64,000 nt of DNA, taken from contig NZ_GL882539.1 in the NCBI RefSeq assembly GCF_000195595.1, positions 59,124-123,123 on the forward strand. Reading direction: 5' to 3'. The notes under the pieces are model-generated. The model saw nothing but the letters and a program-made list of their open reading frames with translations. It had not been told where the DNA came from and did not search any database. The position numbers and the translations under genes were made by a program. Below are positions 1-12,218 of the stretch, in pieces. Every line of letters begins with the position of its first letter. The first letter of the stretch is position 1. Source of the DNA: Actinomyces sp. oral taxon 170 str. F0386 (lineage in GTDB: Bacteria > Actinomycetota > Actinomycetes > Actinomycetales > Actinomycetaceae).

Positions 1-2437
1 CACCGGCGCCGCGAGCCTCAGGGGCGGCCGTGCCCGCCCTGCTCGTGGCAGCGGGCAGCCCACCAACGCCGACCGGCGCCGCGGAGCCGTCAGCGCTCCC
101 ACCTCCGGGTGAGGCCGTCGCCTTCCCGCCCGGGACCGCACCGGCACCGTCACTGGGCGCCGCCGAAGCCGACGGAGCCGCCTGTGCATCGGGCGTAGCC
201 GACGGCGTCACCGTGGCACTCGCCGACGGCCCGGCACTGGGCGTCGAGGACGCCGCCCCCGTCGAAGGCGGAGCCGACGGCGTACTGGGTGGAGCCGCCT
301 GCGCACCGGGCGCGGCCGACGGCGCCGCCGTGGGCGCCGCATCGGCGGGCACCTCGACGTAGAAGCTGTTGAGGACCTGACCGGCGGCGTTCACTGACTC
401 CAGAGTCACCCAGCGGCAGCTGTCCGCGGAGCCTGTGCGGCAGGCACCGGTGGGTGCGTCGGCCGGGACCGTGAGGTCGAAGCTCGCCTTACCGGTGGTG
501 GGGCCGGTACGGTCCACGGTCAGGTCGATGTTCTGACTGAAGAACTCCTTGTCCCCGGAGCGGGCACGGACCCGTTGCGCACCGAGGGTCTGTTCGGAGG
601 CGTTGGTGTAGGCCAGGGAGTCCATCGTCACTGTCACGAAGCCGGCCCGGCCCGGCTTCGGGACCGCGCTCATACCCACCTGACGCTTGGCGTAGGACGG
701 GCTCAGGGGCTTGTCGCCGAAGGACTGCAGGTAGGAGATGAAGACGGTGTGCTGGAGCGTGCCGACGTTGACGACGGCATCCTCGTCAGGACTGGGGAAG
801 TCGTTGTTGTCATGGAGCAGCTCGTAGGTGGAGGCCAGGACCACCGGGTCCGTGTCCCCCAGAACCTGCCCGTCGACCCGGATCTCACGCACTGTGGGAA
901 CCTTCCCGTTCTCCACCGTCGCGTCGGGATCCACGATGACGTCAACATTCGAGGACAGCCCCAGGTTGAGCACGGGGGGCTCGGCGTAGAACCTCCACTG
1001 GTGGGCGATGAGCTTCTTGAGCTTTGCACCATTGACGGTGACGTAGGCGAGCGGTTTGTTGTCGGATTGGACGCTGAGTGCCTCCCCGTAGGTCACCAGG
1101 CCGTCCTGGTCAGGGCGCAGGATGTCGTCATGGCGGCCGGACTCGAGGTAGGTGAGGTCGTTCTTCACGTCGCGGGTACTGACGATGCCGACATAGTGGC
1201 TGGAGCCGGGAGGTTTGATAGAGGTGATCCAGCTGTGATACGAGTCGGCGACCAGGTCGGCGGCTGAGGACTCCGTTGCCGTATTGGTGTTGGGGACACT
1301 TCCGTCAGACCCCCGCAGGAAGTCCGCCCCGATATGCGCCAGCGGCTGCTTCGAGACATCCCTGGCGGCACCTTCGTACTCCCAGGTCTTGTTCCAGACC
1401 TCAGGAGAGGATCCTCGGCATGCGTAATGTCCGATCCACATGTTCTCTGCGCTGGAGGAGACGATCTTCCGAGTCGTTCGGTCGTACTCCAGGAGAATGT
1501 CCCCGAAGCTCCGACCGTAGATCTGGGGCTGGACGACAGCGATCGAGTTTCCCTCGAATCCGGTGACGACCTGTCCGTACTCCCCTGCCCCACGGCCGGA
1601 GACGACGGCGTCGACATTCTTGGAGAAGCTTGTCGCCGTGGAGGCCATGTCCTCGTGGCTGAGCACGACGACGATGTCGGCCTCACCGTTGGCCGGGTTG
1701 CCGTCCTTGAGCTCGGCGGCGCGGGCGTTGGCCGTGGCCACCGCCGGGGAGACGCTCAGAACCTCTCTGTTCGCAGCGAGTGTTCGGATGGGAAGCTCGT
1801 CGGTCACCACACCGACGAAGCCGACGCGCACCCCGTCGACCTTCTTGACGAAGACCCCGCGACCGCTCCCCTCGGCACTGAGGGAAGCGGAGCCGGACAC
1901 GTTCGCCGCCAGGATGGGGAAGTCGGAGGCTGGCAGGATCCTGTCCTCGAGGTCCTTCACCCCTCCGTCGAGCGCGTGGACCCCCAGGGCTGAGGCATCC
2001 AGCTTCATCGTATTGAGGCCATAGATGATGGGCTGGTCCTGCACGAAGGAGGACGCGTGGGGCGAGGCGCCGATGTTGCCGCCGGAGGAGACGACAAGCG
2101 TGTTGGGGAAGTCCTCCCGGACCCCGCGGACAGCGCACTCGATTCCGATCAGGCCGTAGTCCCTGGAGGGGTCGTACTCCTCGGTCTCCGGGTTGTACCC
2201 GCTCGTCTCCAGGTAGTGACCGCGAAGGTTACCCAGGCCGATCAGCTTGATGCGCACCTTGTTGCCCGGATCGTCGGCCCCTTGGTTCCCGTCAGCGCCG
2301 TCGGGCGGCTTCTCCACAGCGGCGGCCGGCGGTATGAGGGATGCTGTCGGAGCCGCGACCATGGGACTCAGTGCAGCCACAACCAGAGCGCTCAACGCAG
2401 CGCAGACTCGTGCTCTCCGAGTTGGAAATATTCTCAT
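1..2437 (-). CDS. Secreted 5'-nucleotidase-like protein with degenerate active site (C-terminus beyond window)
   Basis: The frame is open from an ATG at 2437 to the left window edge, about 812 codons, so the C-terminus is missing. Residues 1-40 are a Sec signal peptide (RR, then an Ala/Val/Leu core). Residues 60-300 align by eye with the metallophosphatase domain and 370-560 with the 5_nucleotid_C domain of secreted 5'-nucleotidases. The metal-binding motifs are eroded: NDxHG is GNLRG (69-73), the SAGDNIGAS motif is SSGGNIGAS (from 117), GNHEFD is GVHALD (152-157) and GHTH is GRGA (281-284); only H154 and H261 remain. Substrate-site NPGGVR reads STRDVK. From about residue 700 the chain is Pro/Ala/Ser-rich, like a wall-spanning stalk before a sortase signal, but no LPXTG is visible here. 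Probably a binding or structural pseudoenzyme. Confidence 0.85.
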   Translation of the reverse strand, partial: MRIFPTRRARVCAALSALVVAALSPMVAAPTASLIPPAAAVEKPPDGADGNQGADDPGNKVRIKLIGLGNLRGHYLETSGYNPETEEYDPSRDYGLIGIECAVRGVREDFPNTLVVSSGGNIGASPHASSFVQDQPIIYGLNTMKLDASALGVHALDGGVKDLEDRILPASDFPILAANVSGSASLSAEGSGRGVFVKKVDGVRVGFVGVVTDELPIRTLAANREVLSVSPAVATANARAAELKDGNPANGEADIVVVLSHEDMASTATSFSKNVDAVVSGRGAGEYGQVVTGFEGNSIAVVQPQIYGRSFGDILLEYDRTTRKIVSSSAENMWIGHYACRGSSPEVWNKTWEYEGAARDVSKQPLAHIGADFLRGSDGSVPNTNTATESSAADLVADSYHSWITSIKPPGSSHYVGIVSTRDVKNDLTYLESGRHDDILRPDQDGLVTYGEALSVQSDNKPLAYVTVNGAKLKKLIAHQWRFYAEPPVLNLGLSSNVDVIVDPDATVENGKVPTVREIRVDGQVLGDTDPVVLASTYELLHDNNDFPSPDEDAVVNVGTLQHTVFISYLQSFGDKPLSPSYAKRQVGMSAVPKPGRAGFVTVTMDSLAYTNASEQTLGAQRVRARSGDKEFFSQNIDLTVDRTGPTTGKASFDLTVPADAPTGACRTGSADSCRWVTLESVNAAGQVLNSFYVEVPADAAPTAAPSAAPGAQAAPPSTPSAPPSTGAASSTPSAGPSASATVTPSATPDAQAAPSASAAPSDGAGAVPGGKATASPGGGSADGSAAPVGVGGLPAATSRAGTAAPEARGAG

Positions 2438-8270: not shown

Positions 8271-11200
8271 TCACATGCTCACGTCGCGGAAGTCGAAGGG
8301 GTAGATCCCCATGGGGTTCCAGTGGGCGAGGAGACGAGCGCCGGTGGCCGCGTCGTGGGCCCACAGCTCGCTGGTGATGACGACGCCGCCGCCCTCCAGC
8401 TCACTGAGGTCCAGGCGGTGATGGCCGTCGACGTAGTCGTCGGCCTGCTCCACCGGGTAGAGGGCCAGGTCGGCGGCGGGGACGGACAGGCCGGTGAGCT
8501 GCTCGTCGAGGCCGGCGAGGTCATTGCCGGAGATGCCGTAGCGGCTCGCCAGCTCGTTGACGTCGCGGCGCGCGATGGCGGCGACGAACTCCTGGACCTC
8601 GGTGTAGATCCGACGGCGCAGCTCCTCGTTCCCCCACGGGGCCGGGGCCGGCTCGGCGGGCTCCTCCTGGGCGGCCTCAGCGCCGTCGGCAGCCTCGGCG
8701 CCCTCCACGGGCGCCTCAGGTGTCTCGGCGTTCTCCTCGTTGCTCTTCCCGCGTTCCTCAGCGACCTGCTCGGTCGGGGCACTCTGGTCCACACGGTCCT
8801 CGGCGTCATCCTCAGGCGTCGAGGCGGTTGGCGCGGAGGCCGCTCGAGCCTCAGGCTCCGCCGCGTCGGCAGTGTCCGTGACGCTCGCTGTCTCCGTCGC
8901 GTCTGACGCGGGCGGCACCGCGCCCTCGACGGAGGCCGCGTACCAGGGGATCTCCGCCTGCTCGGACCGTCCCGACTCACCGGGCTCCTCGGACGGCTCC
9001 CGGGTCGCCTGCTCGCCCTCGCGGCCGGTGTCGACCGGGGTCCGTGCCGAGACCGCCACGTTCTCCCAGGCCTCACCGGAGGAGGCTGTCGGCTGCTGCT
9101 CGACGGCATCGGCCAGGGCCGACTCAGCCGGGTCGGGGGCGACGGTCTCACCGGTGGGCGCGGCGACGGGCTCGCCACCGGGGTGCTCGACGGAGGGGAC
9201 CGCCACCGGCTCGTAGGCGGACTCGGCCGTCCCGGAGGACGGCGCCGTCCGCGTCGGAGCGGCGACCTGCGAGGCTGTCTCGGGGACCGCATCGGCGGCG
9301 GCCTCAACCACCGCCTCCGAGGCCGGCTCAGCCGGGGTCTGGGCCGTGGCGGCGGCGTGCCTGACCCGACGCGTGTCGGCGTCGGAGCCGGTCTGAGGCG
9401 CCGGGGCGGCGGGTGTCTCGACGACAGCCTCGGACTGCTCCTGCGGGGCGCCCTCGGACGCGACGGGGACCGCCCCGGGAGCGGCGGGCATCTCCACCAT
9501 CGACGGCGTCGTCACGGCCGGCGCGGTCACCTCACCGTCCTTGACGCCCTGATCGACGGGGAAGGGCTGGACGAGGAGGGTCTCGCCCGTCGGCGCGGCG
9601 ACCGGCTCGGTCTCGACCGGTGCGGCCGGCTGCTCGGTGCCCTCAGCGGCGCCGGAGCCCTCGGCCGGCGTGTGGGCGGTCGCGGCCATGTGCCGGGCCT
9701 GGCGGGCGACGGCCGCGTCCTCCGCCTCGGGGGCGGAGACCGGAGTGAGGATCTCGGCCTCGGCAGAAGCGGACTCACCCGCCTCCGCCTGCTCGGTCAC
9801 GGCCCCCACCATCGCCTCGGGCGTCGGCTTGGAGGCCGGTACGGGCTCGGCGGCCGCCTCAGGAGCGTTCTCAACGGGCTCGGAGACGGGAGCAGACGGC
9901 GCCTCAGCCTCAGCCGGCACGTTCGCACCGGTGGCGATGGCGGCCTGGGCAGTGGCACCGGCGTCGACCGACGCATGCTCACCCACCGGCCCCTCCGACG
10001 CGGCAGTACTCTGTTCGGCCGCCTCCTCCACGGACTGGTCGGCCTCAGCCGCCTCACCCCTCTCGGCGGTCTCAGAGGTCAGGGGCGCCTCCGTGGACTC
10101 CTCGGGACCCTCCGCGGCCGGTTCCTCGTCCACCGGGACGACCGGAGCGGACTCCGCAACGACCTCGGGCAGCGGGGCGGTGATGTACTGACGCCGCTCC
10201 ACGCCCACGCGAGTGAGCTGGCCGGCGAGGATCTCGGGGCGGCCGAGGTAGTCCCAGACCTCGCCGGGACCCGAGCGCAGGCTCAGGGAGGGGGCGTCGA
10301 GGATGGCGACTCCGCCGTCGGGCAGGAAGCACAGGAACAGCCCGGTCATCTCGCCGGTGGCGGCGTCCCACAGGCGCACGGTGCCGTCCTCGGAGCCGGT
10401 GAGGACCCGGGTGCCGTCGGGACTCCACTGGGCGTCGGTGACGCCGAAGCGGTGGCCGGCCAGGGACAGGACGACCTTGCCGGAGACCTCGTCCCACACG
10501 CGCACGACGCCGTCGTCGAAGCCGGCCAGGACCCGGGTGCCGTCGGGGTTCCACGCGTAGGAGCGGACCATGGCGGCATCGTCGCGCAGCGTTACGAGCT
10601 CGCCGGAGGTGATGACGTCCCAGACGTGGGCGGCGCCGTCGGCACTGCCGGTGACGACGCGGGGACCTCCTTGCGTCCACACGACGTCGCGCACCCAGTT
10701 GCCGGTGTAGGTGTGGATGACCTCGCCGGTGGTGGCGTCCCAGATGCGGGCGGTGCCGTCCTGGGATCCGGTCAGGACGCGCTGGCCGTTGGGGCTCCAG
10801 GCGACCGAGGTGATCATGTCGCGGTGGCCCTCGAGGGTGAGGAGGCGCTCGCCGGTGGTGGCGTCCCAGATCGCGGCGCGGTTGTCCCCCAGGCCGGAGA
10901 GGATGCGCTCGCTGTCAGGGCTCCAGGCGACGTCGTTGACGTCGTCCTCGCCAGCAGTCAGAGCCTGGACGACGTCGCCGGTGGCGGCGTCCAGGATGAG
11001 GACGCGTGGTGAGAGGTAGGAGGAGGTGGCCAGGCGGGTGCCGTCCGGGCTCCAGACGACCTCGCTCAGCTCGCGGGCGCCGTTGTCCACGGTCAGCCGC
11101 GGCTCGCCGGTGGCGGCGTCCCAGACGCGGTTGCCACCGATCTTGGCGCCGATGGTGAGCTTCGTGCCGTCGGGGCTCCAGGAGACGGTCTCGACGGAGT

Positions 11201-12218
11201 TGCCGGCCCCCAGGACCAGCTGGGTCTGGCCGGTGGCGGCGTCCCAGACGCGCACGGTGTCGTCGTGCGAGCCGGTGGCCACACGGCGCGAGTCCGGGCT
11301 CCAGGCCAGGGAGCAGGCCCACTGGGTGTGACCGCGCAGGCTGAAGAGCTCCTCGCCGGTGGCGGCGTCCCAGACGTGGGCGGTGGTGCCGGAGATGTCG
11401 TCGGTGACGATGCGGCTGCCGTCGGGGCTCCAGGAGACGACGCTCACCCAGCGGCGCTCGCGGCCGTGGAGGCTGAGGACCTCCTCGCCGGTGGCGGCGT
11501 CCCAGACCCGGGGCTCGGCGGAGTCGAAGGCGGTGATGATGCGACGCGAGTCCGGGCTCCAGGAGAGCCCGGTCATCGGCTCGATCGGGCCGATGTGAGT
11601 CGGCTTGCCGTCGGGCCCCACGGTGCCGCCGCGCCCCACGAAGGCCATGGGGCCCACACGCAGCAGCTCGGTGCCGGTGGTGACGTCCCAGACACGGGCG
11701 GTGCCGTCGTCGGAGGCCGTGGCCACGCGGGTCCCGTCCGGGCTCCATGACACGGCGGTGAGGTGCTCCGTGTGGCCGGACAGGGTGCGCACCACCTGGC
11801 CGCTGGAGGCGTCCCAGATGCGGGCCGATGCGTCGTCGAATCCGGTGAGGATGCGGGTGGAGTCGGGGCTCCAGGCCACTGCCCCGCCGACGCCGGAGCC
11901 GCCGACGCCCAGGGTCAGAAGGTCGGCACCGGTGGTCGCGTCCCAGACGCGCACGCTGTGGTCCTCCGCCGCGGTGAGGAGGCGCGTACCGTCGGGGCTC
12001 CAGGCCACTGCGCTGATGGACAGGCTGGGGCCTGCGAGTGCGAACAGCTCGGTACCGCGGTTCGCGTCCCAGACACGGGCCGTGCCGTCGTGAGATCCGG
12101 AGAGGAGCCGCGTGCCGTCCGGGCTCCAGGCCACACCCCACAGCGCGTCGAAGTGGCCGGCATACAGTGACACCTCGCGAGGGTCGATCATCCCCGAGGT
12201 CTCTGAAGGCACAGTCAT
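8271..12218 (-). CDS. Giant WD40-repeat protein with acidic linker and C-terminal domain
   Basis: A 1315-residue cytoplasmic protein: no signal peptide, no membrane segment. Residues about 15-640 contain 14 WD40 repeats, each with a WSPDG-type turn and an xVWDAATG ending, enough for two seven-bladed propellers. One repeat (blade 12) has WTQGG instead. Residues about 690-1195 are a low-complexity Ala/Glu/Pro/Val linker of about 500 residues with recurring phrases such as PVAAPTGET and ADTRRVRHAAATAQTPAE. The last 110 residues form a compact domain (begins near EELRRRIYTEVQEFVAAI) that I cannot name; it may be NTF2-like or DUF7668-like. Function unknown; a protein-interaction scaffold is the simplest reading. 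The ATG at 12218 follows TAGACT by 6 nt (leaderless). Confidence 0.9.
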   Translation of the reverse strand: MTVPSETSGMIDPREVSLYAGHFDALWGVAWSPDGTRLLSGSHDGTARVWDANRGTELFALAGPSLSISAVAWSPDGTRLLTAAEDHSVRVWDATTGADLLTLGVGGSGVGGAVAWSPDSTRILTGFDDASARIWDASSGQVVRTLSGHTEHLTAVSWSPDGTRVATASDDGTARVWDVTTGTELLRVGPMAFVGRGGTVGPDGKPTHIGPIEPMTGLSWSPDSRRIITAFDSAEPRVWDAATGEEVLSLHGRERRWVSVVSWSPDGSRIVTDDISGTTAHVWDAATGEELFSLRGHTQWACSLAWSPDSRRVATGSHDDTVRVWDAATGQTQLVLGAGNSVETVSWSPDGTKLTIGAKIGGNRVWDAATGEPRLTVDNGARELSEVVWSPDGTRLATSSYLSPRVLILDAATGDVVQALTAGEDDVNDVAWSPDSERILSGLGDNRAAIWDATTGERLLTLEGHRDMITSVAWSPNGQRVLTGSQDGTARIWDATTGEVIHTYTGNWVRDVVWTQGGPRVVTGSADGAAHVWDVITSGELVTLRDDAAMVRSYAWNPDGTRVLAGFDDGVVRVWDEVSGKVVLSLAGHRFGVTDAQWSPDGTRVLTGSEDGTVRLWDAATGEMTGLFLCFLPDGGVAILDAPSLSLRSGPGEVWDYLGRPEILAGQLTRVGVERRQYITAPLPEVVAESAPVVPVDEEPAAEGPEESTEAPLTSETAERGEAAEADQSVEEAAEQSTAASEGPVGEHASVDAGATAQAAIATGANVPAEAEAPSAPVSEPVENAPEAAAEPVPASKPTPEAMVGAVTEQAEAGESASAEAEILTPVSAPEAEDAAVARQARHMAATAHTPAEGSGAAEGTEQPAAPVETEPVAAPTGETLLVQPFPVDQGVKDGEVTAPAVTTPSMVEMPAAPGAVPVASEGAPQEQSEAVVETPAAPAPQTGSDADTRRVRHAAATAQTPAEPASEAVVEAAADAVPETASQVAAPTRTAPSSGTAESAYEPVAVPSVEHPGGEPVAAPTGETVAPDPAESALADAVEQQPTASSGEAWENVAVSARTPVDTGREGEQATREPSEEPGESGRSEQAEIPWYAASVEGAVPPASDATETASVTDTADAAEPEARAASAPTASTPEDDAEDRVDQSAPTEQVAEERGKSNEENAETPEAPVEGAEAADGAEAAQEEPAEPAPAPWGNEELRRRIYTEVQEFVAAIARRDVNELASRYGISGNDLAGLDEQLTGLSVPAADLALYPVEQADDYVDGHHRLDLSELEGGGVVITSELWAHDAATGARLLAHWNPMGIYPFDFRDVSM

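What the first reader, a model, noticed from the sequence alone, without database searches (positions are those of the whole stretch)
1..2437. Secreted 5'-nucleotidase with nearly all metal ligands replaced
Domain order and scaffold are those of a surface 5'-nucleotidase, yet the Asp-x-His (GNLRG), Asp (SSGGNIG), Asn (GVHALD) and GHTH (GRGA) ligand motifs are all substituted, as is the substrate loop (STRDVK in place of NPGGVR). Fold-defining residues around them are kept, so this is selective loss and not random decay; the frame is open throughout. It looks like a pseudoenzyme kept as a surface adhesin, decoy or ligand-binding protein.
Basis: partly seen in the sequence, partly recalled or inferred. 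Interest (0 to 1): 0.72.

Follow-up and report, generated by a model that had tools for sequence, protein, structure and literature searches.

The report
Dead surface nucleotidase kept in Actinomyces
An oral Actinomyces carries three side-by-side genes for wall-attached nucleotide-cutting enzymes; one looks intact, while the other two, including the gene in this finding, have lost metal-holding residues yet have been kept in related species, probably for a non-enzymatic job at the cell surface.

Summary
The window gene (here C) encodes a secreted 5'-nucleotidase-fold protein in which 6 of 7 metal ligands and the substrate clamp are replaced; the ligand H217 and the catalytic pair H117/D120 remain. 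The frame runs off the window into a 40-N assembly gap. It is no isolated oddity. C is the outermost gene of a tandem triplet C-B-A between glutamate dehydrogenase and a sugar-PTS cluster. A keeps every ligand, B has lost two plus the nucleobase clamp, C has lost six. B and C form one clade with A as sister, so inactivation preceded their duplication. C orthologues occur in 8 of 49 same-genus genomes; all 8 lack ligands, have open frames and give dN/dS of 0.13-0.51. Six substituted active-site residues (V, R, K, D, K, E) are fixed in all 15 B/C sequences, and ligand loss goes on stepwise within C. Across the genus, ligand state changed at least four or five times in this family. Best reading: a sortase-anchored pseudo-5'-nucleotidase, catalytically dead and kept as a non-enzymatic surface binding protein. 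Loss of catalysis is inferred; ligand and role are untested. It is a new variant of a known kind.

The parts
1..2437 (-). gene C, wall-anchored pseudo-5'-nucleotidase (812 codons in window; the 3' end lies outside, across a 40-N assembly gap)
2318..2437 (-). signal peptide region, residues 1-40 (basic start, hydrophobic core)
   Evidence: own reading of the translation; no signal-peptide predictor was available
1418..2260 (-). N-terminal metallophosphoesterase-fold domain, residues 60-340, without a PF00149 match
   Evidence: AlphaFold2 model and Foldseek to CD73/UshA; Pfam scan
2228..2230 (-). N70, position of UshA metal ligand D41
2222..2224 (-). R72, position of H43
2078..2080 (-). G120, position of bridging ligand D84
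1979..1981 (-). V153, position of N116 (V in all 15 B/C sequences)
1967..1978 (-). H154 to D157, positions of the catalytic pair H117/D120, retained
1655..1657 (-). H261, position of ligand H217, retained
1586..1594 (-). R282 and A284, positions of H252 and Q254 (His in relatives)
698..1345 (-). C-terminal substrate domain (PF02872, 5_nucleotid_C), residues about 365-580
   Evidence: (E 1.3e-7, residues 384-540)
1163..1165 (-). K425, position of phosphate-binding R410
1055..1063 (-). D459 and K461, positions of clamp F429 and of N431
821..823 (-). E539, position of clamp F498
359..691 (-). extra beta-rich domain (Ig-like is an own label), residues 583-693; 86% DNA identity to paralogue B against 63-65% in the two head domains
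2..358 (-). Ala/Pro/Ser-rich stalk, residues 694-812; the sorting signal LARTG + hydrophobic stretch + RRRR lies beyond the assembly gap

Best explanation
C is a cell-wall-anchored pseudo-5'-nucleotidase. An ancestral active surface nucleotidase (A) next to gdh duplicated; the copy lost metal site 2 (N116V, H252R) and the nucleobase/phosphate pocket (F429D, F498E, N431K, R410K). That dead copy duplicated again into B (which still holds the ligands of metal site 1) and C, where D84 and H254 were lost and then D41 and H43 stepwise. Shown: graded ligand loss, shared ancestry of B and C, conservation across species, open frames, dN/dS below 1, fixed new pocket residues, a wall-sorting signal in orthologues. 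Inferred: no hydrolysis; the protein works by binding, its remodelled charged cleft and two-domain head held out on a stalk to salivary, host or bacterial partners (adhesin or receptor), the fold serving as a scaffold. Which ligand is unknown.
For: Ligand table. Triplet and synteny methyltransferase-gdh-[C-B-A]-DeoR-PfkB-PTS (domain names). Tree with ligand columns removed: B+C, B and C each 100/100. C orthologues in 8 of 49 genus genomes, B in 7 of 49. Nei-Gojobori dN/dS median 0.425 over 28 of 28 C pairs (0.125-0.513), 0.233 over 21 of 21 B pairs, 0.234 over 21 of 21 pairs of 7 A sequences. Null simulation: an unselected frame stays open in 21, 1 and 0 of 1000 runs at 0.1, 0.25 and 0.45 substitutions per site. 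6 of 14 active-site columns among 19 fixed A-versus-B/C differences, P 2.5e-5. LAxTG, hydrophobic stretch and basic tail in 7 of 7 B and 7 of 8 C directly, and in this C in one of three frames after the gap. Fold kept: pLDDT 76.2, best PDB match CD73, E 1.9e-31. B and C persist in G022, which has no third PF02872 gene at E 0.001, so they do not merely assist A. Precedent: S. suis SntA, a wall-anchored relative, binds C1q and heme (PMC5964162, abstract).
Against: No activity, binding or expression data. dN/dS of C is nearly twice that of A or B, as relaxed constraint would also give. Among the close relatives G001, G018, G020 and G021 carry A alone and G039 lacks B, so neither B nor C is essential. 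The retained H117, D120 and H217 leave a small chance of residual or altered chemistry. The model was built with active relatives in its alignment, and whole-chain TM-scores to the best PDB matches are moderate (0.47-0.60 by query length).
Confidence: 0.72

Rival explanations
1. C is a gene in slow decay: it lost function after duplication and its frame is open only because the inactivation is recent or constraint is weak.
For: C has higher dN/dS than A and B (median 0.425 against 0.23), loses further ligands within its clade, and is absent from several close relatives.
Against: The B/C duplication predates the split of the 8 carrier genomes; 8 of 8 C frames are open; dN/dS is at most 0.513 in 28 of 28 pairs; six new active-site residues are fixed in 15 of 15 B/C sequences, and unselected frames would be expected to break.
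Confidence: 0.12
2. C is an enzyme with changed chemistry: the cleft keeps H154, D157 and H261 and gains Lys, Arg, Asp and Glu, giving a metal-free or one-metal enzyme on another substrate.
For: The H117 and H217 positions are kept in 8 of 8 C and D120 in 6 of 8 (Glu in two), and the substituted cleft residues are fixed; B keeps D41, H43, D84 and H254.
Against: The two-metal centre defines the superfamily's chemistry (PMC7922932 passages). C lost 6 of 7 ligands, and D41/H43 vary among D, N, S, G and H, R within C, which a working metal site would hardly tolerate.
Confidence: 0.08
3. C is a partner subunit that joins or regulates active A.
For: Tandem linkage with A and retention of the fold. 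That CD73 is a dimer is recalled; a passage of PMC8677862 says the bacterial homologue, in contrast to CD73, is monomeric, which speaks against.
Against: G022 keeps B and C but has no A and no other PF02872 gene; four close genomes keep A without B or C.
Confidence: 0.08

Closest known systems
Surface/periplasmic 5'-nucleotidases (UshA, CD73/NT5E, LPXTG-anchored Nt5e)
   Same: Domain order, fold, C-terminal domain family PF02872, secretion; 51% identity with the intact neighbour A over the first 646 residues
   Different: 6 of 7 metal ligands and the Phe-Phe nucleobase clamp are gone; no PF00149 match; NCBIfam nucleotidase models match far below their cut-offs
SntA/CdnP, wall-anchored CpdB-like proteins of streptococci
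   Same: Wall-anchored relatives of the same superfamily; SntA has reported binding roles (C1q, heme) (PMC5964162, abstract)
   Different: SntA is an active phosphodiesterase (PMC8981391, search listing only); C lacks the metal ligands
Pseudoenzymes in general
   Same: Paralogue of an apparently active enzyme with catalytic residues lost, and fold and open frame kept
   Different: No bacterial pseudo-5'-nucleotidase stood in the listings of the searches made

Membership tests
5'-nucleotidase family (PF00149 + PF02872) | 5_nucleotid_C domain | tested here: met
   PF02872 32.3 bits against cut-off 23.6
5'-nucleotidase family (PF00149 + PF02872) | Metallophos domain PF00149 | tested here: not met
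   no match at E<=1; A scores 26.0 against cut-off 21.5, B and the G035 C have no match
5'-nucleotidase family (PF00149 + PF02872) | two-metal centre ligands D41, H43, D84, N116, H217, H252, Q/H254 (list recalled) | tested here: not met
   1 of 7 kept in C
5'-nucleotidase family (PF00149 + PF02872) | nucleobase clamp of two aromatic residues and a phosphate-binding Arg | tested here: not met
   F429D, F498E, R410K; clamp role from PMC7922932, clamp and Arg roles in CD73 from PMC8677862 (passages); R410 as the CD73 Arg395 position is recalled
5'-nucleotidase family (PF00149 + PF02872) | two-domain fold | tested here: met
   AlphaFold2 + Foldseek, CD73 and UshA on top
5'-nucleotidase family (PF00149 + PF02872) | hydrolysis of nucleotides | not testable with these tools
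   needs an assay
Sortase-anchored surface protein | signal peptide, LPXTG-like motif, hydrophobic stretch, basic tail | tested here: inconclusive
   tail present in the 7 other C orthologues; in this genome it lies beyond a 40-N gap, readable in one of three frames after it; three sortase genes in this genome
Pseudoenzyme | homologue of an active enzyme lacking catalytic residues, conserved by selection | tested here: met
   by sequence only; activity of A and inactivity of C are not assayed

The most novel reading that the evidence does not exclude
The gdh-linked, wall-anchored nucleotidase locus of Actinomyces is a recurrent source of non-catalytic surface receptors: active sites have been discarded four or five times in the genus, and in the oris/johnsonii group two dead heads carry a new, fixed Arg/Lys/Asp/Lys/Glu cleft for a non-nucleotide ligand, while gene conversion keeps the stalk-side and anchor modules alike and the heads stay apart.
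Probability: 0.3. Interest if true: 0.7.

Novelty: new variant of a known kind. Interest (0 to 1): 0.52.

Why it matters
An active, a half-dead and a dead paralogue stand side by side in one locus, with intermediates in living species, so the order of active-site loss can be read directly and the change from enzyme to surface binder can be tested. These are plaque bacteria, whose surface proteins govern adhesion and host contact (established knowledge), and any annotation that calls every member of this array a nucleotidase would probably be wrong for B and C.

Tried and rejected
Shifted ligands: rejected, because A, B and C align without gaps inside the motifs. A single recent mutant: rejected by 8 orthologues. 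Pseudogene: see rivals. Anti-phage defence role: no PADLOC match at E<=1. RNA element in L004: none at gathering score. Promoter and terminator scan of the triplet: 1 promoter-like site (0.7 expected) and 4 terminator-like sites (2.2 expected), near chance. Model coordinates were not among the files in the Python box, so pocket geometry was not measured. A first segment-identity script failed and was replaced; its ungapped tail comparison was repeated with gaps, which raised some A-tail values (for example 55 to 65%) and showed that B-C tails within a genome are no more alike than B tails between genomes.

Rows dropped: of 37 genomes with a match (own included) were fetched for the tree; G002, G013 and G017 were not, nor were the second matches of G047 and G043. 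One 231-aa fragment of G029 was filtered out, and G029_L061_2514, whose first motifs are missing from its frame, was left out of the ligand-state count (54 of 55 rows). The dN/dS set for A used 7 of the 11 sequences of the A clade. The family-wide search (159 of 213 genomes with a match) was used for spread only; ligands were not read outside the genus.

Full report
What is there. The window gene C (minus strand, 2437 to 2) encodes 812 residues before the window ends. In the genome the window starts directly after a 40-N assembly gap (L004 11085-11124); after the gap one of three frames reads LARTG, a hydrophobic stretch and RRRR. Related contigs are named Actinomyces johnsonii CCUG 34287 (95% protein identity over 646 residues), A. 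oris S64C (89%) and A. oris P6N (79%), so the genome is an Actinomyces close to these; its own name was not given.

Active site. UshA of E. coli K-12 was fetched and aligned with 55 Actinomyces sequences, C among them. Roles: H117 and the Phe429/Phe498 clamp from PMC7922932 (passages); the CD73 clamp Phe417/Phe500, Asn390, Asp506 and Arg354/Arg395 from PMC8677862 (passages); the list of ligands and contacts D41, H43, D84, N116, H217, H252, Q254, D120, R410, N431 and D504 in UshA is recalled. In C, 6 of 7 metal ligands are replaced, and so are the clamp (D459, E539), R410 (K425), N431 (K461) and D504 (N545); H117, D120 and H217 are kept. In C PF02872 matches and PF00149 does not; in A both match. 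D84 needed care: MAFFT set UshA one residue off there, whereas BLASTP of A and profile alignment of C agree on SAGD and G120.

A linked triplet. PF02872 occurs three times in this genome, all side by side. A (L004 5652-8189) keeps all ligands. B (8325-10892) has lost N116 and H252 plus the clamp, R410, N431 and D504, but keeps D41, H43, D84 and H254, the would-be metal site 1. C has lost nearly everything. The order is methyltransferase, glutamate dehydrogenase, C, B, A, DeoR regulator, PfkB kinase, PTS permease (domains by Pfam; 'fructose-type' in my script labels is own reading). C-B-A is present in 6 genomes, C-B in G022, C-A in G039, and A alone in G001, G018, G020 and G021 and in more distant genomes. 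On a tree of three flanking genes of 14 genomes the presence of C changes at least 4 times, of B 5, of A 1 (5 of its 11 inner branches have support under 80). G022 has no other PF02872 gene.

History. In a 56-row tree without the ligand columns B+C, B and C are each 100/100, and A is their sister (26-row clade, 95/98). Shared states place N116V, H252R, R410K, F429D, N431K and F498E in the B/C ancestor (inference). D84G and loss of H254 are common to all 8 C. D41 and H43 are still Asp and His in G035 and G045, Ser or Gly and His in G040, G023 and G039, Asn and Arg in G000, G014 and G022: the remaining ligands went one after another once the site was dead.

Selection. Nei-Gojobori dN/dS medians: A 0.234 and B 0.233 (21 of 21 pairs each), C 0.425 (28 of 28 pairs, 0.125-0.513); the method ignores codon bias, and third positions are 77-92% G+C. 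An unselected C frame soon breaks in a simple simulation (open in 21, 1 and 0 of 1000 runs at 0.1, 0.25 and 0.45 substitutions per site). Of 351 columns invariant in 14 A sequences, 19 are fixed for another residue in all 15 B/C; 6 of these are among the 14 active-site columns (P 2.5e-5). Columns invariant in A whose residue is absent from all C: 11 of 17 in or beside the site against 91 of 334 elsewhere (Fisher P 0.0019). So the site is a focus of change, and several new residues are themselves held. Against this, C is less constrained than A and B.

Fold. AlphaFold2 on C with 32 relatives: pLDDT 76.2, pTM 0.70, most of the N-domain at 80 or more; Foldseek finds CD73 and UshA (E 1.9e-31 and 1.2e-29; TM by query length 0.47-0.60 in the rows shown). 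A as control: pLDDT 84.6, pTM 0.76, E 5.2e-36 to a Thermus 5'-nucleotidase. The relatives in the alignment include sequences with intact sites.

Recurrent loss. Of 54 scorable sequences of the genus 25 lack at least one of nine ligand or catalytic-pair residues; the tree needs at least 5 changes of that state, or 4 without G043 and G046, whose His-to-Asp changes may still bind metal (such counts do not tell loss from gain, but intact sites are ancestral to the superfamily). Besides the 15 B/C these are the gdh-side copies of six genomes (DxH to DxG; a second, intact copy lies beyond the PTS genes), G019, G009, G043 and G046. Single substitutions such as DxG need not abolish activity.

Concerted ends. 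Within genomes B and C share 61-71% DNA identity in the head domains but 76-86% in the extra domain, as much as orthologues do there (78-89% for B, 82-92% for C, in the pairs compared). In G040, G023 and G039 the last 120 bases of A are 82-94% like those of B or C, although A tails of G000 and G040 are only 65% alike (gapped). B-C tails within a genome (82-93%) are not clearly more alike than B tails between genomes (82-88%). Gene conversion of the extra domain and of some A tails is the simplest reading (inference).

Function. The sorting tail, stalk and kept fold say surface display. A nucleotide-binding decoy is unlikely because both stacking rings became acidic. A helper of A is unlikely because of G022. 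A binding role is the best inference; SntA of S. suis, a wall-anchored relative, binds C1q and heme (PMC5964162, abstract). Nothing here identifies the ligand.

Literature. The listings (titles and starts of abstracts) of six searches of the open library show no bacterial pseudo-5'-nucleotidase and no study of these Actinomyces proteins; the papers listed were mostly not opened. One search on A. oris wall-anchored proteins listed 10 papers, none opened. In a survey of ushA-like genes the word Actinomyces does not occur, and a table lists Actinomycetaceae as without ushA-like and with cpdB-like genes (PMC10454023, passages); a cpdB survey does not mention the genus either (PMC9958556, term search). 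Subscription papers are not held.

Noticed in passing
L004:5652-13561 and the equivalents in 7 other genomes: The extra domain of B and C is as alike within a genome as between orthologues (76-86%), and the A tail of G040, G023 and G039 resembles the neighbours' tails (82-94%), while heads stay 61-71% alike: signs of gene conversion.
   Followed up: partly
L055-L061 (gdh-side copies): Another lineage has a gdh-side nucleotidase with DxH changed to DxG in six genomes and an unusual C-terminus, plus an intact copy beyond the PTS genes; in G029 the gdh-side copy appears split between two frames.
   Followed up: partly
L065:2558-4906 and L066:2425-4983: Two divergent homologues carry Asp in place of His at both H217 and H252 with the other ligands intact; possibly an altered metal centre.
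   Followed up: no
L004:8252-8296: A perfect 13-base inverted repeat (arms 19 bases apart) lies between genes B and A, without a T-run that the terminator scan would accept.
   Followed up: no
window 8271-12218 (-): A 1315-residue protein with an N-terminal array of WD40 repeats (10 stretches, PF00400), then a long Glu/Ala/Pro-rich region and a further C-terminal part (own reading).
   Followed up: no
just before window base 1 (L004 11085-11124): A 40-N assembly gap interrupts gene C near its 3' end, so annotation of this genome may show a truncated or frameshifted protein.
   Followed up: yes
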